Source: Patescibacteria group bacterium (GTDB lineage: Bacteria > Patescibacteriota > Minisyncoccia > JAHCSD01). Taken from it: 6,558 nt of DNA. Where the stretch lies: assembly GCA_018609185.1 (NCBI GenBank), contig JAHCSD010000023.1, positions 1 through 6,558 of the forward strand, read 5' to 3'. The translations under genes and the position numbers were made by a program. This document shows, piece after piece, positions 1 through 6,558 of the stretch. How positions within the stretch are numbered: the first letter of the stretch is position 1; the number at the start of each line of letters is the position of its first letter. The notes beneath the pieces are model-generated. The model saw only the letters and a program-made list of their open reading frames with translations, made no database searches and had not been told where the DNA came from.

Positions 1-867
1 CTTCCGCCTCCGCCTCCCACTAATCTTGCAAGCAGCCTTAATTACTGCGAAAACAGTCCTGATATTCGGCCTACGTTTTCCTGGGACTATGTTGATTCTT
101 GTGCGACGGGCCATTCCCAGACTGCGTTCCAGATTCAAATCGCCCAAGACGATAATGGGGTTCCTGACCCCACAGATTTCAGCAGTCTCGTGTATGATAC
201 ATGTGACCTGGTTCCGGGCGGCAGTTTTTCTAACCCGATTGATACGTGTGTTCCCTTCGCCGTTGGAACTTGTCCTTCGGGCACTACCTGCAGTTATACT
301 CCGGTTTTTGGCATTCCGGAGTTAATCTATAACCAATTAGTTCCCAACGAGTATATCTTTCGTATCAAGAGCTATAATGAAAACGGATGGTCAGGCTGGT
401 CGGAGCTAGCCACGTTCGAAATTGTCGATCCTGTTACAGGCTTCCCTGTACTTCACGCAAAACCCGCAGTTGAGTTTAACTTCATTCCTTCAAAGCCGTT
501 TATTGACGAGCCGGTGACGTTTGATAGTACCCCATTTACCAGTTGTTTTGATACGGGCGGCGTCGGAGACGGAAAAAACCCCGTGGTGTGCCCTCTTGGA
601 GTTGTGGCTATAGATCCGGTTCCGCCTTTCAATGAAGGCTTTACCTGGAACTTCGGAGATGGCCAGCCCGGATCTATTTTGCAAAATCCCTTACCAGATC
701 GAGAAAAACCCATATATGCATATGTCGATAGATCGCCAAGGCCACCCGGTTATTATTCTGCCGTTCTCGTGGTGAGGGATGATGAAGGGTATCAATGTTC
801 AGATTTGGAAAATATTGAAATTGGTGTGAGGTTTAGAATTCCGGACTGGAGAGAGATAGCGCCGTAG
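1..867 (+). CDS. Secreted/surface protein with Fn3-like and PKD domains, C-terminal part (5' end outside window)
   Basis: The frame is open from base 1 and ends at TAG 865-867, giving 288 residues of a longer protein. A proline run (residues 2-6) acts as a linker. Residues about 19-143 look like a fibronectin-III-type beta-sandwich: FSWDYVD near its start and YIFRIKSYNENGWSGWS near its end, the usual 'Y.fri.a.N..G.s.ws' signature. Residues about 156-280 form a PKD-like domain, with the hallmark FTWNFGDG at 214-221 and a late strand YYSAVLVVRDDEGY. About nine cysteines are scattered through both domains, which suggests disulfides and export. The protein stops soon after the PKD domain (GVRFRIPDWREIAP) with no membrane anchor or sorting motif, so any signal peptide or anchor must be upstream. 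An internal GTG at 190 is not a convincing start because it cuts the Fn3-like domain. The role is inferred to be adhesion or cell-surface structure; substrate unknown. It converges on gpmI. Confidence 0.85.
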   Translation, partial: LPPPPPTNLASSLNYCENSPDIRPTFSWDYVDSCATGHSQTAFQIQIAQDDNGVPDPTDFSSLVYDTCDLVPGGSFSNPIDTCVPFAVGTCPSGTTCSYTPVFGIPELIYNQLVPNEYIFRIKSYNENGWSGWSELATFEIVDPVTGFPVLHAKPAVEFNFIPSKPFIDEPVTFDSTPFTSCFDTGGVGDGKNPVVCPLGVVAIDPVPPFNEGFTWNFGDGQPGSILQNPLPDREKPIYAYVDRSPRPPGYYSAVLVVRDDEGYQCSDLENIEIGVRFRIPDWREIAP

Positions 868-870
868 GTG

Positions 871-905
871 AGGCATTAGGCATTAGGCAATAGGGATTAG
901 GGGCT
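871..905. repeat. Degenerate heptamer tandem repeat (about 5 units)
   Basis: Directly after the stop of the surface-protein gene are five 7-base units in register: AGGCATT, AGGCATT, AGGCAAT, AGGGATT, AGGGGCT. The first two are identical and the rest drift by one to three bases. The run ends three bases before the A-run of the terminator. It contains TAG in more than one frame, so it also acts as a stop backup. No function is evident; it looks like slippage-derived sequence. Confidence 0.6.
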
Positions 906-908
906 AGT

Positions 909-939
909 AAAAAACACCTGAATTAATTCGGGTGTTTTT
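909..939. terminator. Bidirectional rho-independent terminator between convergent genes
   Basis: AAAAACACC at 910-918 pairs with GGTGTTTTT at 931-939. The stem continues through T919-G930 (wobble) and GAA 920-922 with TTC 927-929, leaving loop TTAA 923-926. The A-run on the left and T-run on the right give a U-tract whichever strand is transcribed. It sits between the plus-strand surface-protein gene (42 bases downstream of its stop) and gpmI on the minus strand (about 55 bases past its stop), so it can end both transcripts. Confidence 0.88.
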
Positions 940-954
940 CGTCTTCAATGTTGG

Positions 955-986
955 GAGGTCGAACCTCCCCGGGGAGGTTCGACCTC
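955..986. repeat. 32-base perfect palindrome built from two nested hairpins
   Basis: The sequence is perfectly self-complementary about the 970/971 junction. The left half is GAGGTCGAACCTCCCC and the right half its exact complement. Each half is itself a small hairpin: GAGGT-CGA-ACCTC on the left, GAGGT-TCG-ACCTC on the right. Transcribed from either strand it can form one long stem or two short UCG/CGA-loop hairpins (cruciform or paired hairpins). No T-run follows directly, so it is not a classical terminator alone. It lies between the terminator and the gpmI stop hairpin and may protect the 3' end of the transcript or be a REP-like dispersed palindrome. Confidence 0.8.
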
Positions 987-1014
987 TTCTCGCATTACTC
1001 AAGTAACGCGAGAA
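987..1014 (-). promoter_or_regulatory. Hairpin spanning the gpmI stop codon
   Basis: On the minus-strand transcript, 1014-1003 (ttctcgcgttac) pairs with 998-987 (gtaatgcgagaa) over 12 pairs. Eleven are Watson-Crick and the 1007/994 pair is a G-U wobble that would be a mismatch on the other strand, which fits selection on the gpmI RNA. The loop is TTGA. The TAA stop (997-995) lies within the stem, so the last few codons (LLALLE) and the stop are inside the structure. It abuts the 955-986 palindrome without a gap. A role in 3'-end stability or termination is inferred. Confidence 0.6.
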
Positions 1015-2554
1015 GGCTTTGGCCTGTCATTTCATCCGGTTTCCTAATATCCAAAAGTTCTAATACGGTTGGCGCCACATCTGCAAGGATTCCTTGGGTG
1101 TTTGATTCGGCTGTTTTTTCGGGCTTGGGGAAGGATTGTCCCTTAAAAGGGTTGCCAACGAGGTAAAACGGAACGGGGTTTTTTGTGTGTTCAGTTTTTG
1201 TTTCTCCTGTATTAATATCGAGCATTTCTTCAATATTTCCGTGGTCCGAGGTTACGAGTAGGATTGCGTCACGAGCAAGAACCTCATTTTTTATATCTCT
1301 TAATACGTTATTGATAACTTCTGCCGCTTTAATTCCTGCCTCAAAATTTCCGGTGTGGGCCACCATATCGCTATTGGCAAAGTTTGCCAAAATAAATGCA
1401 TAGCGATTGAGCTTGAGCGCTTTTTTTATTTTTATCGCAAGTTCCGGGGAGCGCATTTCCGGCGTTTCTGCAAAACTCTTTACCTTAGAAGAGGGGATAA
1501 GAACCCGGTCTTCTCGCGGGTAAGCTTTTTCCTTCAGGCCATTAAAAAAATAAGTGATATGAGCATATTTTTCGGTTTCAGCCACATGAAGCTGGCGGAA
1601 ACCCGCATCACTAATTACTTTTGCGAGAGGCTTGAGTATTTTTACAGGCCGAAAGGCAATTTCTACCGGTAGTCCTTTTTCGTATTCCGTCATGGTGACA
1701 AAAAGGAGATTTTTTAGTTTTTTACGAGAGAATCCCTTGAAGTCATCCAATACAAACGCCTTAGTTAATTGTCGTGTGCTGTCTTCCCGGTAATTAAGGA
1801 AGATAACGGCGTCGCCGTCTTGTATGAGAGGGGCTTCATTCCCTACGATTGCCGGTTCGATGTATTCGTCTGTGACACCTTTTTGATATTGGGATGTTAT
1901 ATAATCTGCGGCATTCGTAATTCCCCCCCCCCTTCCTTTCGTGAGCAGAACGTAGGCGGCTTGGGTAAGTTCCCACTCATCATTTCGGTTCATGGCAAAC
2001 TTTCTTCCCATAATAGACCCGATTTGGCCCAATCTTTCTTCAGCGAGTTTTTTTTCAAGTTCTGCGATTACCTTTTTCCCTTCTTTTGGAGGTGCATCCC
2101 GTCCATCGGTGAACACATGAACAAGGGTACGTTCTGAAAGCTTTTGGCGTTTTGCAAATTCGAGAAGGGCATAGAGATGATCGCTATAGGCGTGCACTGA
2201 TCCGGAAGAGAAAAGGCTCATAATATGAAGCCGTGAAGAATTCTTTTTTGTGTGGTGTGCAGCTTTAAGAAATGCCGCGTTAGTAAAAAAAGATCCCCGT
2301 CGAATTGAGAGGATGATACGAGGGAGGTATTGGTAGATAATTTTTCCGGCACCCAAGTTTAAGTGTCCGGATTCACTGTTTCCTGGTTCTCCCCAAAGAA
2401 GTCCAACTGAGATCCCCGAAGCGTTAAGGAGGGCATAAGGGTAGAACCGTTCCATTTCGGTAAACGTCGAAAGATTTGCCTTGGTAAGGGGATTCGCAAG
2501 AGTATGTTCTCCCTCGCCCCAGCCATCTAATATGATTAATACGACCTGTTTCAT
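995..2554 (-). CDS. gpmI: 2,3-bisphosphoglycerate-independent phosphoglycerate mutase
   Basis: This cytosolic glycolytic/gluconeogenic enzyme interconverts 3-phosphoglycerate and 2-phosphoglycerate using two metal ions and a phosphoserine intermediate. At 519 residues it is full length for the family. The phosphatase-like domain is split around the transferase insertion. DGWG 10-13 and the nucleophile Ser60 in GNSESGH come first; then SVH with His121, DGRDAPP 150-156, and GRKFAMNR with Arg184 and Arg190. ETEKYAH follows with Lys329, then DMVAHTG with Asp396 and His400, DHG 437-439 and EHTKNP with His456. Two deviations stand out: Ser replaces the usual Val after SE (62), and the usual NFRPDRARQ reads NYREDSTRQ (254-262), losing one substrate-binding Arg (Ser at 259). 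A run of ten G encodes RGGG (208-211). ATG at 2554 is chosen because MKQVVLIILDGWG is the expected N-terminus. No clear Shine-Dalgarno precedes it; the structured intergenic element runs up to the start. Last gene of the minus-strand run. Confidence 0.96.
   Translation of the reverse strand: MKQVVLIILDGWGEGEHTLANPLTKANLSTFTEMERFYPYALLNASGISVGLLWGEPGNSESGHLNLGAGKIIYQYLPRIILSIRRGSFFTNAAFLKAAHHTKKNSSRLHIMSLFSSGSVHAYSDHLYALLEFAKRQKLSERTLVHVFTDGRDAPPKEGKKVIAELEKKLAEERLGQIGSIMGRKFAMNRNDEWELTQAAYVLLTKGRGGGITNAADYITSQYQKGVTDEYIEPAIVGNEAPLIQDGDAVIFLNYREDSTRQLTKAFVLDDFKGFSRKKLKNLLFVTMTEYEKGLPVEIAFRPVKILKPLAKVISDAGFRQLHVAETEKYAHITYFFNGLKEKAYPREDRVLIPSSKVKSFAETPEMRSPELAIKIKKALKLNRYAFILANFANSDMVAHTGNFEAGIKAAEVINNVLRDIKNEVLARDAILLVTSDHGNIEEMLDINTGETKTEHTKNPVPFYLVGNPFKGQSFPKPEKTAESNTQGILADVAPTVLELLDIRKPDEMTGQSLLALLE
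1923..1932 (-). repeat. Homopolymer of ten G (coding strand) inside gpmI
   Basis: The plus strand has ten consecutive C, read as ten G in gpmI codons AGG GGG GGG GGA (residues 208-211). The reading frame is intact on both sides, so ten is the in-frame length. Such tracts are prone to polymerase slippage in cells and to length errors in sequencing. Confidence 0.9.
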
Positions 2555-2702
2555 GCCAATTTTGCCCGCGAGCCACGCGAGTGGTTATAAAATTGAGCAC
2601 CCCGTTAGATAGAGCTCTCAGAGCTCGCTCATCTAATGGGGTAAGGTTTTGCAACCAGTCAACCTTCGTCCTATGGACTCGTTTGACTGGGCAAAGCCCC
2701 TA
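2555..2702 (-). repeat. Structured intergenic element, copy A (upstream of gpmI)
   Basis: Third copy in transcription order. Reading the minus strand, a stem GGCTTTGC/GCAAAACC (about 2699-2692 with 2652-2645) encloses a variable hairpin: CCAGTCAA/TTGACTGG (2690-2683 with 2662-2655), then GA/GA, then GTCC-ata-GGAC. The conserved core hairpin is 2642-2599, with CCCC..TTAGAT paired to ATCTAA..GGGG and inner arm GAGCT/AGCTC. Bulged TGAGC (2631-2627) is complementary to GCTCA (2598-2594), a possible pseudoknot. Unlike the other copies, the start-proximal stem is CAATTTT/AAAATTG (2595-2589 with 2563-2557) with inner CCAC-tcgc-GTGG, ending at GGC then the gpmI ATG. Its 5' end overlaps the last codons of the upstream gene. 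Function unknown. Confidence 0.85.
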
Positions 2703-3666
2703 TATCTCTTCCGTCGGGGTAGGAACTGACCTCCGCATCGTTAACGGTAAATACGGCTATGTCTGATCCTCCTCGTGCTTCAAACTGCTCAAATGTCATT
2801 CGCAGCCACTGTTTGGTGCCGTCCAGGTTTACCCGGTATACTTTTGTTTTATCTCTCCCTCGTACCCAGTTGGTAAGGATATATTCATCCAGCGTGCCTT
2901 GGGGGACAATTTGAACCGTATTTAAATTAACGTGGCTGTAAAAATCAATGACTCTTGGATCGACCACGACGCGTTTAAAGAGTTTTCCTCCGTCAGATTT
3001 TATAAGATAGAGTTCTCCTCGTCCTTCTTCTTTTACAAGGCCTACAAGTCTAGTTGCAATCTGCGGGATTTCCTGGGGAGAGATTTCTCCGGCAGGCTTA
3101 GGGATCACCTTTAAACTAAGAGAGGTAGCAACAGGAGTCCTTCCAAACTGATTGTCAGTTAATGCGACGGTTATGGTATAGTCTCCTGTTTTTTGCGGCG
3201 CTTTCCAGCGAGCGGGGCCGTACCGTGCAAGAGGGGTGAGCGTTCCTGCGCTTGCATTCCAGCGGATATCCACCTCGTCTCCGTCGGGATCATAGGCGTT
3301 AAGAAAGATAGTAATTGTTTCTCCCGGAAGAACCTGTGACCGGATTGAGGTAAAGTTAAAAATAACGGGCGCAGAGTTTGTGGCGAGACTGTCGCTCGAA
3401 GGGATATTACGGGCCGGGATCTCAATCCCCAATTTTAATGCTACGGTATCAATAGCGCCAAAGTTAACACGTATGGGAAGCACCGGTTCAAGCCGCCGCT
3501 CCTCAAATGTTTGATTCAGTGAGTCGAGTATGGTGAAAAAGATAAAAGCAGATGTTGCGAGAAAGGTCAGTGCGACAAACCCAAGGGCGAGGTATGGGTA
3601 TACCTTTTTATTAAGAAAGAAGTTTTGGAGCTTAATTATGAGACGACCGCGAGGTTTTTTGGGCAT
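2671..3666 (-). CDS. Membrane-anchored extracytoplasmic protein with PKD/cadherin-like domain and repeated C-terminal domain
   Basis: 331 residues. A basic N-terminus (MPKKPRGRLIIK) is followed by one hydrophobic segment at about 23-46 with no cleavage site visible, so it is probably anchored with the C-terminus outside. Residues about 98-188 form an immunoglobulin-like beta-domain of PKD/cadherin type (PGETITIFLNAYDPDGDEVD, later GDYTITVALTDN). Residues about 205-320 look like two tandem copies of a small beta-rich module: ELYLIKSDGGKLFKR and KVYRVNLDGTKQWLRM align, and the second copy ends DAEVSSYPDG. Similar modules are familiar to me from Parcubacterial surface and pilus-associated proteins, but I cannot name the family. 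ATG 3666 follows copy B of the intergenic element with no clear Shine-Dalgarno. The last nine codons (GALPSQTSP) and TAG lie inside copy A, so the tail is probably recruited sequence. Placement after pilO suggests a pilus or envelope accessory role (inferred). Confidence 0.85.
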   Translation of the reverse strand: MPKKPRGRLIIKLQNFFLNKKVYPYLALGFVALTFLATSAFIFFTILDSLNQTFEERRLEPVLPIRVNFGAIDTVALKLGIEIPARNIPSSDSLATNSAPVIFNFTSIRSQVLPGETITIFLNAYDPDGDEVDIRWNASAGTLTPLARYGPARWKAPQKTGDYTITVALTDNQFGRTPVATSLSLKVIPKPAGEISPQEIPQIATRLVGLVKEEGRGELYLIKSDGGKLFKRVVVDPRVIDFYSHVNLNTVQIVPQGTLDEYILTNWVRGRDKTKVYRVNLDGTKQWLRMTFEQFEARGGSDIAVFTVNDAEVSSYPDGRDIGALPSQTSP

Positions 3667-3829
3667 GCCAGTGTTCTCAACGAAACGAACAAACTTGTTT
3701 GTGACGTTGAGTTGCTAGAACAGTGAGCACCCCGTTAGATAGAGCTCGTAAGCTCGCTCATCTAATGGGGTAAGGTTTTGTAACCAATCAGCCTTCGCTA
3801 ATGCTCAGGCTTCTTGGACAAAGCCCTTA
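3667..3829 (-). repeat. Structured intergenic element, copy B (between pilO-like and the 331-residue gene)
   Basis: It fills the whole gap from the pilO-like TAA (3829-3827) to the next ATG (3666). Minus-strand reading: GGCTTTGT/ACAAAACC outer stem, with TAAGG/CCTTA also complementary so the stop codon can join it. The variable hairpin is CCAA-GA-AGCCT ... AGGCT-GA-TTGG (3817-3784), with a further GA/GA around GC-atta-GC. The core hairpin is 3771-3729 with tetraloop TACG; bulged TGAGC (3760-3756) is complementary to GCTCA (3728-3724). The start-proximal hairpin is CTCAACG/CGTTGAG (3711-3705 with 3682-3676), inner arm ACAAAC/GTTTGT, then AACACTGGC before ATG. No T-run, so not a terminator; no ORF. 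Confidence 0.9.
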
Positions 3830-4363
3830 CTTTAGATAAATGTTTGCCGTAAGATTTGCTTTTGTATTCGAATTAAGATCGGGATCTCCGGTAAGCGACA
3901 GGCTGCTTATAATCACAAAGTGATCAAATGTTTTAATCCCGTCAAGAAATGCGTATATTGAATCCAGGGTCCCTTCGAGCTGCAGGGTGAAGGAAGCCGT
4001 ATAGATAGCGGGATAGACGCTTTTGGCTGCAGTTTCTCCTGCAAGGGAAATTTCTGCCTTGTTGCCCGTCTCTTCCGCAAAGGCAAGCACTTTGTTTTTG
4101 AAGGGTCGGGGATCAAGCCGCGGAAGAAGGGAATCTTCAAGAATAAAGAGAGCTCCCACCACGTCGTCAAATTCTTTTTTTAGCTCCGCAAGCTTGTCTT
4201 CCTGAAACGAAAGTTCCGCGATAACCAGTTTTTTAGTTTCAATGGCGTCCTGTTGTGTTCGAATCCTGTTTATTAAATATCCGTTTATAAGGGCGCTCAA
4301 TAAAATCACCACTGCTGCCCGGGCAGAGAATATCATCAACTGTTTTTTTAGTGTTTTATTCAT
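3827..4363 (-). CDS. pilO: PilO-like type IV pilus inner-membrane platform protein
   Basis: 178 residues, close to the family's usual length. It has a short cytoplasmic N-terminus (MNKTLKKQLM), one transmembrane helix at about 13-32, a coiled-coil region at about 35-75 (QQDAIETKKLVIAELSFQED, then KLAELKKEF), and a ferredoxin-like periplasmic domain at about 80-178. The PilO hallmarks visible are YTASFTLQLEGTLDSIYAFL (the 'v.l.l.G.y..i..fl' strand-helix) and a following strand FVIISSLSLTG. In the family PilO pairs with PilN to form the periplasmic collar that links PilM and the platform to the outer parts of the pilus machine. Sequence identity is low in this family, so the call rests on the fold pattern plus position. 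ATG overlaps the TGA of the upstream pilM-pilN gene (ATGA), implying translational coupling. TAA is directly followed by element copy B. Confidence 0.8.
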   Translation of the reverse strand: MNKTLKKQLMIFSARAAVVILLSALINGYLINRIRTQQDAIETKKLVIAELSFQEDKLAELKKEFDDVVGALFILEDSLLPRLDPRPFKNKVLAFAEETGNKAEISLAGETAAKSVYPAIYTASFTLQLEGTLDSIYAFLDGIKTFDHFVIISSLSLTGDPDLNSNTKANLTANIYLK

Positions 4364-5847
4364 GGAAGAGGAGGCGATGATTTGAACGGGAATAAAATAG
4401 ATCTATCTTTAAGGTGTAAGGTGTATGTAAAGGGGATACCCGTATCTTTTTCAAATGAAGAAAAGGGAATCGTGAGGTCTCCCTCGTAAATTCCCGAGAA
4501 CGATAAAGCGGATTTAAAGTCGAGCATGAATCCAATGTCTTCAGCTGTCCCGCCAAGTTGAACGGCACTAGATGCTAAGTTTATTGAAATGTTTGTAACT
4601 TGTATTCCCGGGCGAACCCGAATAGTAATGTCTCTTAGGGGCGTAACCCAGTCGGGCGAACTCCCCTCAATATTGGCGAGCGGTTCAACAATAGTATTAA
4701 ATCCTGTTATTTCTTCTTCGAGTTCAGCGATTTCCTGGGTTGCAGGTTGCGCTCGTTTGATGGCTATTTGTTCGTCCTTCTGTTTTTCAAAGCCGGGAAG
4801 AATATAGAATGAGGTGAGGGAGAAAATAATTACGAGAATGACCGATATAATGATGATAAAATCGTTTACAATCTTTGAAAACAAAAGTACCTGGGCTTCA
4901 TGAAAGAGCTCTTCTGTTCCGGGGGTCATGAGGCTGATAAATTTGTCTTTGCCCCGGGGGACTTGTCCGCGCAGGGCAGACCCCAAAAGGGCCCCACTGG
5001 TTGTCTCAAGCGAAGGAAACTTCAGTTCGGTAATCGTAATTTTCAGGAGTCGTCTTATCTCAGTCTCAAGAGTCTGGACTTTGAGGCGTTCGTTCTCTCC
5101 TGCGTCAACAATTAATTCTTTAATAACCGGCCCGCGCGGGTGTTCGGTAAAGTAGTATTCGATTATGCGCAGGAGTTCTTTTTTGAGTGTTTTCTCGGTT
5201 CCTTCCCAGCCAGTAGTGCGGCTGAAAGACACAATGTTACCAGAAAGGATAATACTTGTAATTCGGTTTGGTTTCAGAAGAAGCAGGATGCGTCCTCCTT
5301 TTGGGGGAGACGTGAGGAATCGACGGATGCTCAAAAATTCACCTTCAAGCGCAACAGGGTGGAGCCCGGCTTTTTGTATGGTTTCCAGGTAATCGTCAAT
5401 TTTCCCGCGTTCAACATATGCCACCTGTATGCGTTTTTGTTTATCTGAAAACGAGTGTTCTTCCCAGTCATAGATGATTTGATCGAAGGGCAAAGGAGAG
5501 TTTTTTTCCAGATTTGAAGAAATAGTGTCTTCCAGCGGCTGCAGCGCAAGACTTTTTGGTACGAGAAAACTGGTATAGTGAACGAGTTGTTCCGGGATAC
5601 TTACCACGACTTTTCGGGGTTCTCTCCAGCCATGGAATAGACGGGGAGGGACAATCTGTTTGAGGGATTTCAGGAACCGTTTTTTATCCTGGAGAACACC
5701 GTCCTGAATTATGCCCTTTTCGAGCCCGTGTTCTTTTTTGTATTCTTGCAGGAGCGGTTTTTTAGATTTCTTAAATAGTAATAAGCCAACAGCTTCATCG
5801 CTGATGGCAAGCCCGGCTATTTTTTCTTTTTGATAGAAGAAAAGCAT
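4360..5847 (-). CDS. PilM-PilN fusion, type IV pilus inner-membrane platform protein
   Basis: 495 residues covering what are usually two genes. Residues 1 to about 300 resemble the actin-like cytoplasmic PilM: KVVVSIPEQLVHYTSFLVP (79-97), a typical PilM strand pair; AYVERGKIDDYLETIQKAGL (143-162) followed by HPVALEGEFLSI; and a late TTSGALLGSAL (282-292). Residues 303-309 (FISLMTP) resemble the N-terminal 'INLLP' peptide by which free-standing PilN docks in PilM. Then come a transmembrane helix at about 329-350, a short coiled coil (355-385) and a PilN-type periplasmic domain (about 395-481) with ITIRVRPGIQVTNISINL and LGGTAEDIGFMLDFKSAL. The phosphate-binding loop near residues 11-22 (GLAISDEAVG) is divergent from the usual DIGSSSIK type, so nucleotide binding is uncertain. 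The arrangement recalls GspL of type II secretion. ATG 5847 follows element copy C; TGA overlaps the pilO start. Confidence 0.88.
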   Translation of the reverse strand: MLFFYQKEKIAGLAISDEAVGLLLFKKSKKPLLQEYKKEHGLEKGIIQDGVLQDKKRFLKSLKQIVPPRLFHGWREPRKVVVSIPEQLVHYTSFLVPKSLALQPLEDTISSNLEKNSPLPFDQIIYDWEEHSFSDKQKRIQVAYVERGKIDDYLETIQKAGLHPVALEGEFLSIRRFLTSPPKGGRILLLLKPNRITSIILSGNIVSFSRTTGWEGTEKTLKKELLRIIEYYFTEHPRGPVIKELIVDAGENERLKVQTLETEIRRLLKITITELKFPSLETTSGALLGSALRGQVPRGKDKFISLMTPGTEELFHEAQVLLFSKIVNDFIIIISVILVIIFSLTSFYILPGFEKQKDEQIAIKRAQPATQEIAELEEEITGFNTIVEPLANIEGSSPDWVTPLRDITIRVRPGIQVTNISINLASSAVQLGGTAEDIGFMLDFKSALSFSGIYEGDLTIPFSSFEKDTGIPFTYTLHLKDRSILFPFKSSPPLP

Positions 5848-6005
5848 GCCAATGTTCTCAACGAAACAAGCAAACTTGTTCGCGACGTTGAGTTGTTAGA
5901 ACAGTGAGCACCCCATTAGATAGAGCTCGCAAGCTCGCTCATCTAACGGGGTAAGGTTTGGCAGCCAATCGCTCGCCTCGGGCGAGCTCTTGGGCCAAGC
6001 CCTTA
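5848..6005 (-). repeat. Structured intergenic element, copy C (between pilC-like and pilM-pilN)
   Basis: It fills the gap from the pilC-like TAA (6005-6003) to the pilM-pilN ATG (5847). Minus-strand reading: GGCTTGGC/GCCAAACC outer stem, with one pair changed on both sides relative to the other copies. The variable hairpin is CCAA-GA-GCTCGCC-cga-GGCGAGC-GA-TTGG (5993-5965). The core hairpin is 5952-5910 with tetraloop TGCG; bulged TGAGC (5941-5937) is complementary to GCTCA (5909-5905). The start-proximal hairpin is CTCAACG/CGTTGAG (5892-5886 with 5863-5857), inner arm GCGAAC/GTTTGC, then AACATTGGC before ATG. It is most similar to copy B; the start-proximal portions are nearly identical. Confidence 0.9.
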
Positions 6006-6558
6006 TTGTATACCTGAAACCATTTTATAAATTGGAAGAAGGATAGACATCGCGATAACTCCGACAATAAGTCCCATAACAAGCAGAAGGAGTGGTTCAA
6101 GAAGCGAGAGCAGGTTTTCTACCAGGCGATCTACTTCTTCCTCATAGAATTCTCCAAGCGACCCCAGTGTTTCGTCAAGCGTTCCGCTTTTCTCACCCAC
6201 CGCAACCATCGATATCAGGATATGAGGAAAAAGCCTTGTGTCTTCCCGAAGAGAGTCTGCGATTGAGGTTCCCCGCTTGATTGCTTCAAGGGATTCAGCA
6301 AGCTTCTTTCTGTACGTTTCGTTTCCAATAGATGCACCGGTTATCTTAAGCGCCTCTGTCGCGGGAAGCCCTGCTCCTAACAGCCCCGAAAGAATCCCTG
6401 CGAAGCGCGCAAGCGCGAGCTGGCGCATCATTTTAGAAATGAGGGGAATCCGCATAAGAATTTTTTCCATTACTGTTTTAACCGAAGCGGGGCTCCATAT
6501 CGTGAGGAATGCGCCCAGTCCCATAAAAACGAAAAATCCCAAGATGGTAAGGAGGGGG
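6003..6558 (-). CDS. pilC: PilC/GspF-family pilus assembly platform protein, C-terminal part (5' end outside window)
   Basis: The frame is open to the right edge, so the TTG codon at 6542 is internal (upstream in-frame residues read PLLTI) and the gene continues outside. About 185 residues are visible. They are the second T2SSF domain: a transmembrane helix at the N-terminal end (ILGFFVFMGLGAFLTIW), then a cytoplasmic helical bundle with RIPLISKMMRQLALARFAGI, LLGAGLPATEAL and the family signature VAVGEKSGTLDETL, then a final membrane helix LLLLVMGLIVGVIAMSILLP and a short tail IYKMVSGIQ. In the family this polytopic protein is the inner-membrane core on which the pilus ATPases act. It is the first gene of the visible pilus run, and its TAA is the first bases of element copy C. 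Assignment to the type IV pilus, not type II secretion, follows from the PilMN and PilO neighbours. Confidence 0.93.
   Translation of the reverse strand, partial: PLLTILGFFVFMGLGAFLTIWSPASVKTVMEKILMRIPLISKMMRQLALARFAGILSGLLGAGLPATEALKITGASIGNETYRKKLAESLEAIKRGTSIADSLREDTRLFPHILISMVAVGEKSGTLDETLGSLGEFYEEEVDRLVENLLSLLEPLLLLVMGLIVGVIAMSILLPIYKMVSGIQ

What the first reader, a model, noticed from the sequence alone, without database searches (positions are those of the whole stretch)
2555..6005. Three copies of one unnamed 150-165 base structured element, each filling a stop-to-start gap in the same operon
Three of four junctions in the minus-strand run (5848-6005, 3667-3829, 2555-2702) carry the same element in the same orientation. 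Two begin exactly at the upstream TAA and all three end two or three bases before the next ATG (GGC-ATG). The only junction without it is the ATGA overlap. A near-invariant core (CAAAACCTTACCCC, TTAGATGAGCGAGCT, AGCTCTATCTAA, GGGGTGCTCA) is flanked by diverged but structurally equivalent hairpins. No ORF, no terminal inverted repeats and no U-run, so it is not an IS, a MITE with clear ends, or a terminator. It resembles in style ERIC- or BOX-like intergenic repeats, or a dispersed cis-acting RNA affecting translation or processing between cistrons. I know no named family that matches.
Basis: partly seen in the sequence, partly recalled or inferred. Interest (0 to 1): 0.88.

Follow-up and report, generated by a model that had tools for sequence, protein, structure and literature searches.

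The report
Mobile hairpins bridging stop and start
This tiny bacterium carries about 70 copies of a three-hairpin element, most of them ending exactly at a gene's start codon and about half beginning exactly at the previous gene's stop codon; they likely spread as mobile elements (related copies hold a predicted DNA-cutting enzyme in the middle hairpin) and are likely tolerated because the folded RNA would keep stop and start side by side.

Summary
The three window copies belong to a dispersed family: 68 places above 40 bits in the 0.8 Mb host genome, and covariance-model hits in 126 of 383 genomes of the same bacterial class (probably Parcubacteria, from the named relatives). Each copy is three hairpins with almost no linker bases. 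H1 pairs the stop-codon region with its own inner arm. H2 is a cassette with per-genome arms. H3 ends at, or includes, the next ATG. Covariation is strong. In 6 copies from 5 genomes a GIY-YIG nuclease ORF fills the H2 loop, one with an in-frame stop; similar nuclease hairpins interrupt a 16S and a 23S rRNA gene. Orthologous junctions without the element in relatives are mostly short spacers. Rfam has no credible match. Best reading: a mobile, GIY-YIG-associated intercistronic element whose fold keeps stop and start adjacent, so that operons tolerate it. Position, fold, copy number, nuclease cassette and empty sites are shown; transposition and translational transparency are inferred.

The parts
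5845..6005 (-). Copy 1, pilC-like | pilM-like junction (TAA ... GGC-ATG). H1 6005-5952, H2 5951-5911, H3 5910-5848, start codon 5847-5845
   Evidence: H1/H2/H3 limits counted from the sequence
3664..3829 (-). Copy 2, 178-aa ORF | 331-aa ORF junction. H1 3829-3771, H2 3770-3730, H3 3729-3667, start codon 3666-3664
   Evidence: limits counted from the sequence
2552..2702 (-). Copy 3, 331-aa ORF | gpmI junction. H1 2702-2642, H2 2641-2600, H3 2599-2555, start codon 2554-2552; the upstream ORF reads into H1 and stops at TAG 2673-2671
   Evidence: limits counted from the sequence
6003..6557 (-). T2SSF / PilC-like gene (3' part); its TAA is the first codon of copy 1
   Evidence: Pfam PF00482, E 1.1e-27
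4360..5847 (-). PilM-like gene; starts at the ATG that ends copy 1
   Evidence: Pfam PF11104, E 4.3e-9
3827..4363 (-). 178-aa ORF (pilN/pilO position by gene order, recalled); overlaps pilM by ATGA; its TAA begins copy 2
   Evidence: no Pfam match above cut-off
2671..3666 (-). 331-aa ORF with a sub-threshold PKD match; starts at the ATG that ends copy 2, ends inside H1 of copy 3
995..2554 (-). gpmI (2,3-bisphosphoglycerate-independent phosphoglycerate mutase); starts at the ATG that ends copy 3
   Evidence: Pfam PF06415 E 2.3e-66, PF01676 E 3.7e-58

Best explanation
Three copies of a dispersed three-hairpin element fill stop-to-start gaps here, and the family is likely a mobile, GIY-YIG-nuclease-associated insertion whose fold would keep the stop and start codons next to each other, so that coupled translation across the junction likely continues. 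Shown: (1) about 70 copies in this genome and relatives across the class; (2) most are H1-H2-H3 with a median of 5 unpaired external bases, about the letters of the stop codon and the ATG; (3) H1 pairs the stop-codon region with its inner arm (TAAGG/CCTTA, TAAAGG/CCTTTA, TAACGA/TCGTTA, TAGGGA/ACCCTA) and H3 pairs the last bases before or including the ATG; (4) H2 is a cassette with arms shared inside a genome and recurring across families, with or without a GIY-YIG ORF; (5) relatives have short spacers, mostly 4-18 nt, at several of the same junctions. Inferred: the nuclease, or a relative acting in trans, cuts junctions and repair copies the element in, possibly using TAA and ATG as short homologies; copies without the ORF are non-autonomous; terminated ribosomes re-initiate across the folded element.
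For: Copies: 68 places above 40 bits. Position: in 55 of the 68 the terminal ATG opens an ORF of 50 or more codons; 5 were short or at contig ends and 8 had no ATG end in that call (2 of these 8, C141 and C115, abut an ATG and C135 lies 2 nt from one when read on the other strand). In 34 of 68 the longest upstream ORF stops exactly at the element's first codon, 12 stop inside it, 17 before it, 5 none. In other genomes 47 of 55 inspected copies open such an ORF. Fold: 48 of 52 own copies give exactly three external stems, median external unpaired 5 against 12.8 in dinucleotide shuffles; 44 of 53 in other genomes. Covariation: 18 of 48 pairs with both-side changes within the genome, 46 of 48 across genomes (that alignment was fitted to the model). 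Pairing at the H1 base: 109 of 121 copies have 5 or 6 Watson-Crick pairs of 6 (best of several offsets) against a mean of 14.9 (maximum 26) of 121 when the outer letters are shuffled; among 40 copies without TAAGG, 32 pair with their own inner arm against a mean of 12.5 (maximum 20) when outer ends are swapped between copies. Nuclease: GIY-YIG ORFs in the H2 loop in 6 copies from 5 genomes (Pfam for three ORFs). ORF-bearing and ORF-less cassettes share arms, e.g. CCCAGCACCTTTTT in G068. Empty sites: rpsF|ssb has the element in G256, G000 and G248 but a 12-13 nt spacer in G152 and G291, which are in G256's family; rplF|rplR, rplR|rpsE and rpsE|rplO carry it here, while 11 of 13 such junctions in the named relatives are 4-18 nt. 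Native tight junctions in this genome rarely have a Shine-Dalgarno-like motif (3 of 19), element junctions 1 of 32.
Against: No transposition, excision or translation was observed; everything is from sequence. Only one of about 70 copies in this genome is known to hold a GIY-YIG ORF, and 55 of 73 small GIY-YIG hits in 15 genomes lacked a flanking inverted repeat at the threshold used, so the link may be opportunistic. 257 of 383 class genomes had no hit at E <= 1e-3. The same junctions recur in distant families (rpsK|rpsD, rpsM|rpsK, rplE|rpsN), which a host function kept by descent would also predict. A minority of copies are not stop-to-start (four at TATAAT and one at TATAAC, one before a Shine-Dalgarno-like sequence, one before a terminator-like stem, some without an ATG), so bridging a stop and a start cannot be the only thing tolerated. 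Strong hairpins beside a start codon could equally hinder initiation. No target-site duplication was identified.
Confidence: 0.58

Rival explanations
1. A host cis-regulatory RNA: the three-hairpin leader is an old translation or processing control used by operons, inherited by descent and lost in many lineages; GIY-YIG ORFs merely invade H2.
For: Same strand and ATG-abutting position in most copies; strong covariation; recurrent ribosomal-protein junctions in different families; some copies follow a TATAAT box as if they were leaders.
Against: H2 arms are homogeneous within a genome but differ between genomes (11 of 11 outer H2 pairs never vary in 27 copies; different arms in G256), as expected from recent spread or conversion. 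Copy number runs from none detected to about 70; an orthologous junction is empty in two genomes of the family of an occupied one; copies lie before many unrelated genes.
Confidence: 0.22
2. A non-autonomous element moved by a Y1 (HUH) transposase, like REP/RAYT or IS200/IS605-derived palindromic elements; the internal arms pair with the ends as guide sequences do in those systems (recalled).
For: Abutting hairpins, no terminal inverted repeats, no target duplication seen; pairing of termini with internal arms; PF01797 proteins in 8 of 12 element-bearing genomes, 5 matches in this one.
Against: PF01797 was not found in G071, G083, G090 and G280, which carry several copies; none of the five PF01797 contigs here is among the contigs with element hits; the ORF found inside the element is GIY-YIG, not Y1.
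Confidence: 0.12
3. An ordinary MITE-like repeat with no translational property; only insertions that leave both genes intact survive, which alone puts it between stop and start.
For: Insertions elsewhere would be purged; genomes here are small and gene-dense (inference).
Against: Selection alone would not obviously place the right end at exactly the same distance from the ATG in dozens of unrelated junctions, nor keep three stems without linkers through compensatory change.
Confidence: 0.08

Closest known systems
GIY-YIG-encoding insertion sequences in CPR rRNA genes (Tsurumaki et al. 2024, PMC11270868; abstract and passages seen)
   Same: Same broad group of bacteria; GIY-YIG ORFs in insertions that the authors report match neither group I nor group II introns. 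Here two such ORFs, in a 16S gene (L189) and a 23S gene (L222), lie inside C-rich/G-rich inverted-repeat arms like H2.
   Different: Those sit in rRNA genes. The element here lies between protein genes, adds H1 and H3, and docks on stop and start codons.
Phage T4 gene 60 bypass insert and the homing endonuclease that split gene 39 (review PMC5009743, passages seen)
   Same: A non-coding insert tied to a homing endonuclease and tolerated because ribosomes get past it.
   Different: One 50-nt insert inside a coding sequence, crossed by ribosome bypassing; here about 70 inserts of about 150 nt between cistrons, with reinitiation proposed.
Bypassed inserts of Magnusiomyces capitatus mitochondria (PMC5009743, passages seen)
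   Same: Many dispersed inserts (81 positions) tolerated by translation.
   Different: They interrupt reading frames in mitochondria; no stop-to-start docking.
REP/BIME with RAYT; ERIC and BOX intergenic repeats (recalled; abstract openings for REP PMC3733652 and for enterobacterial RU repeats PMC2759123 seen in a search listing)
   Same: Dispersed, palindromic, intergenic.
   Different: As recalled: not fixed to the start codon, not built of three abutting hairpins, no nuclease ORF in the middle.

Membership tests
Any Rfam 15 family | Covariance-model match | tested here: not met
   Window scanned at E <= 5: three weak hits, all far below gathering scores; only one touches a copy (P26, 19.4 bits against 36)
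Group I / group II intron | Match to intron RNA models | tested here: not met
   No intron family among the hits of the window scan, which covers the three copies
CPR rRNA GIY-YIG insertion sequence | GIY-YIG ORF inside the insertion, no intron structure | tested here: met
   6 three-hairpin copies in 5 genomes, one with an in-frame stop; Pfam PF01541 for the 3 ORFs scanned; the window copies themselves have none
CPR rRNA GIY-YIG insertion sequence | Location in an rRNA gene | tested here: not met
   The copies inspected lie beside protein-coding ORFs
REP / RAYT system | RAYT-type Y1 transposase (PF01797) in genomes with the element | tested here: not met
   No match at E <= 1e-3 in 4 of 12 element-bearing genomes
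REP / RAYT system | Short single palindrome of 20-40 nt | tested here: not met
   50 of the 52 copies are 134-213 nt, 48 of 52 with three stems
IS200/IS605-derived palindromic element | Fixed target tetra- or pentanucleotide 5' of the insertion | tested here: inconclusive
   No consensus 5' of TAAGGG was seen by eye; no statistical test was made
Homing endonuclease cassette | Presence/absence polymorphism at orthologous sites | tested here: met
   rpsF|ssb within family f66; spc-operon junctions between this genome and named relatives
Homing endonuclease cassette | Nuclease cuts the empty site and repair copies the element in | not testable with these tools
   Needs biochemistry
ERIC / BOX repeats | Sequence match to the family consensus | not tested

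The most novel reading that the evidence does not exclude
A new class of mobile element that docks precisely between the stop codon of one gene and the start codon of the next. Its outer hairpins base-pair with the host's stop-codon and start-codon regions and its middle hairpin is an exchangeable nuclease cassette, so the folded insertion is invisible to coupled translation. This lets it fill operons, including ribosomal-protein operons, across the Parcubacteria, and the same kind of nuclease hairpin also enters rRNA genes.
Probability: 0.45. Interest if true: 0.92.

Novelty: new variant of a known kind. Interest (0 to 1): 0.8.

Why it matters
If true, a mobile element has evolved to be translation-neutral by folding, and occupies a large part of the operon junctions in some ultra-small bacteria whose genomes are thought to be stripped down. 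It would help explain the GIY-YIG insertions of CPR rRNA genes that the published survey found outside both intron classes, give a natural test of how far ribosomes can reinitiate across folded spacers without a Shine-Dalgarno sequence, and warn annotators that dozens of operon gaps here are one repeat family. Assembly may suffer too: several contigs of this genome end inside a copy (C18, C119, C146, C90).

Tried and rejected
Rejected: a local duplication (copies on dozens of contigs); intrinsic terminators (an ATG, not a U-run, follows most copies); a known Rfam riboswitch, ribozyme or intron; an obligatory Y1/RAYT partner. I considered a self-cleaving RNA that would make leaderless mRNAs; genes whose start lies inside the end of H3 (ATGGCA forms: L053, L061, L072, L073, L079) do not fit a cut just before the ATG, and I saw no known catalytic core.

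Led nowhere: a scan of viral contigs with the H1 pattern (0 hits); paper searches for CPR intergenic hairpin repeats, GIY-YIG with Parcubacteria, palindromic mobile elements, Patescibacteria translation, and MITE/REP with Patescibacteria gave no description of this element in the listings I saw; those listings are capped and cover open-licence papers only. The genome-contig scan returned only five relatives at 42-51% identity, so no sister species with an empty copy of the window's own junctions was available.

Limits: R1 E-values are rough and in the class search only 8 candidates per genome were scored; of the 126 genomes with hits I inspected copies from 35, plus one named record. The phylum sample (286 genomes, E <= 1e-6) had 6 genomes with hits, this one included, all of this class, but the answer does not state how many of the 286 lie outside the class. 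In one search, 73 of the 92 rows were examined (11 UvrC-sized frames and 8 others left out); the inverted-repeat threshold of 12 was chosen after seeing the list. In one search, 12 of 65 aligned rows were dropped first: 7 antisense mirrors, 3 duplicates, 2 cut or ORF-bearing. Of the 136 rows, mirror-strand rows were removed by hand to give 76, of which 68 were used. Gene names other than those were read from sequence by eye.

Full report
What is there. The window (contig C120, bases 1-6558, of a 799 kb, 153-contig genome) has a minus-strand run: a PilC-like gene, a PilM-like gene, a 178-aa ORF, a 331-aa ORF and gpmI. Copies 1 and 2 begin at the in-frame TAA; copy 3 is read into by the upstream ORF, which stops at a TAG inside H1. 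All three end GGC-ATG at the next start. A further copy lies before the pilC-like gene just outside the window.

Anatomy. Each copy is three hairpins placed end to end. H1 runs from the stop codon (TAAGGGCTT..) to ..AACCTTA. H2 is CCCC.TTAGAT..ATCTAA.GGGG. H3 is TGCTCA..TGGCA. All three window copies fold far better than shuffles (z -5.7 to -6.5). Of 52 own copies with a TAA or TAG at the left end and an ATG at the right, 48 give exactly three external stems, with a median of 5 unpaired external bases against 12.8 in dinucleotide shuffles. On an unfitted alignment of 27 copies, 18 of 48 pairs show changes on both sides and 96.3% of cells pair, against 33-49% when partners are slid. All the double changes are in H1 and H3; the 11 outer H2 pairs never vary among these 27.

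How many and where. BLAST, a pattern and a covariance model agree on about 70 copies: 71+69 matches of CCCCNTTAGAT against 0+1 for its reverse, and 68 distinct places above 40 bits (mirror-strand rows removed by hand). In 55 of 68 the terminal ATG opens an ORF of 50 or more codons. In 34 of 68 the longest upstream ORF ends exactly at the first codon of the element; in 12 it ends inside, in 17 before (in five of these a second ORF does end at the first codon), and 5 have none. Downstream genes include EF-G, L2, L15, L18, L6, S14, ssb and pilC, named here from their N-terminal sequence rather than by a search. Their N-termini look native, so the ATG is taken to be theirs. Exceptions are informative: four copies start at TATAAT and one at TATAAC instead of TAAGGG, one is followed by AAAAGGAGGT before an ATG, one stands before a terminator-like stem, one has lost H3, and two more have no ATG at their end.

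Stop and start codons are part of the pairing. The inner base of H1 follows the flank: TAAGG/CCTTA, TAAAGG/CCTTTA, TAACGA/TCGTTA, TAGGGA/ACCCTA, TTTAGG/CCTAAA, TAATTA/TAATTA. In 109 of 121 copies examined, 5 or 6 of 6 pairs are Watson-Crick, taking the best of several offsets; with the outer letters shuffled the mean is 14.9 and the maximum 26 of 121. Among the 40 copies without TAAGG, 32 pair with their own arm; with outer ends swapped between copies the mean is 12.5 and none of 500 swaps reached 32. In other genomes the start codon may lie inside the end of H3 (ATGGCA).

Other genomes. The H1 pattern occurs in 15 of 383 genomes of the class, with no control hit in the rows shown; the covariance model hits 126 of 383 at E <= 1e-3. 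In a phylum sample of 286 genomes, 6 had hits at E <= 1e-6, all of this class and this genome among them. Across 53 copies from other genomes, 46 of 48 pairs show double changes with 96.7% of cells paired, against 44-50% when slid (that alignment was fitted to the model, so it leans towards it). Some junctions recur in different families: rpsK|rpsD, rpsM|rpsK, rplE|rpsN, rplW|rplB, rpsG|fusA, mraZ|rsmH, rpsF|ssb (names read from sequence).

Empty sites. In the five named relatives, 13 junctions of the types rplF|rplR, rplR|rpsE and rpsE|rplO could be read: 11 are 4-18 nt A/T-rich spacers, one is 56 nt (L124) and one start was mis-called. In this genome all three junctions hold the element. For rpsF|ssb, G256, this genome and G248 have it, while G152 and G291, in the same family as G256, have 12-13 nt spacers; G134 has a longer plain spacer, and G264 and G218 have other, longer spacers that may hold different hairpins. 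In this genome, tight junctions without the element have a Shine-Dalgarno-like motif in 3 of 19 cases (9 of 49 over all junctions without it) and element junctions in 1 of 32. So the native state appears to be a short spacer with coupled or non-Shine-Dalgarno initiation, and the element replaces that spacer.

The middle hairpin is a nuclease cassette. On contig C66, between the L18 and S5 genes, H2 is opened by an 83-aa GIY-YIG ORF (the 120 homologues listed are 61-100% identical, and the source names I could read are lineages that I recall as Parcubacteria, or 'Patescibacteria group' or plain 'bacterium'). Of 73 small GIY-YIG hits in 15 genomes, 18 have flanking inverted repeats scoring 12 or more, above each one's 60 shuffles. 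Six of those are complete three-hairpin elements (this genome, G115, G212, G068 and two in G090, one with an in-frame stop); two lie inside a 16S and a 23S rRNA gene, confirmed by Rfam. The same arms occur with and without the ORF (CCCAGCACCTTTTT in G068) and recur between families (CCCCGTTAGAT, CCCTGTTAAAT, CCCCGCCCTTT). H2 is also found nested inside H2. A published survey of CPR rRNA insertions reported that its GIY-YIG insertions matched neither intron class and seemed outside spread by homing (PMC11270868, passages); the hairpin cassettes here may be the same thing.

Mechanism. I propose that the element spreads by DNA cutting and repair linked to the GIY-YIG cassette, in cis or in trans, with the stop and start codons as short homologies or pairing targets, and that it persists because its fold leaves almost no single-stranded spacer between stop and start. 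A review states that coupling is most efficient at small intergenic distance and is influenced by RNA structure (PMC12548453, passages). Shown: position, fold, covariation, copy number, cassette, empty sites. Inferred: nuclease role, direction of movement, translational transparency. The strongest counter-reading is a host RNA element kept by descent; within-genome H2 homogeneity, patchy distribution and same-family empty sites speak against it but do not exclude it.

Verdict. A real, large, apparently undescribed family (the paper searches listed no description), seen only in one class in the samples searched. It is filed as a new variant of mobile palindromic elements, because mobility and neutrality are not yet demonstrated.

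Noticed in passing
L189 (G212:C17, about 700-920) and L222 (G328:C20): GIY-YIG ORFs inside C/G-rich inverted-repeat arms interrupt a 16S and a 23S rRNA gene; possibly the GIY-YIG rRNA insertions of the published CPR survey.
   Followed up: partly
L163, L165 (own C77:10359-10568), L170, L171, L175, L178: Several GIY-YIG ORFs lie shortly after what looks like a tRNA 3' end, a second recurrent niche for these small nucleases.
   Followed up: no
L252 (G218) and L250 (G264), rpsF|ssb junction: Different, longer spacers, possibly large hairpins, fill the same junction, suggesting further families of intercistronic hairpins.
   Followed up: no
L098 (C135), L089 (C115), L097 (C134), L102 (C146); L101 (C141): Four copies begin at TATAAT and one at TATAAC, promoter -10-like boxes, in place of the stop codon; in some, H1's inner arm is complementary to it although part of that stretch would lie upstream of the RNA start.
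   Followed up: partly
window 948-990: G/C-rich inverted repeat after gpmI (GGTCGAACCTCCCCGGGGAGGTTCGACC), terminator-like.
   Followed up: no
L078 (G090:C8:53865-54035): A GIY-YIG ORF in H2 with an in-frame stop, a decaying cassette.
   Followed up: no
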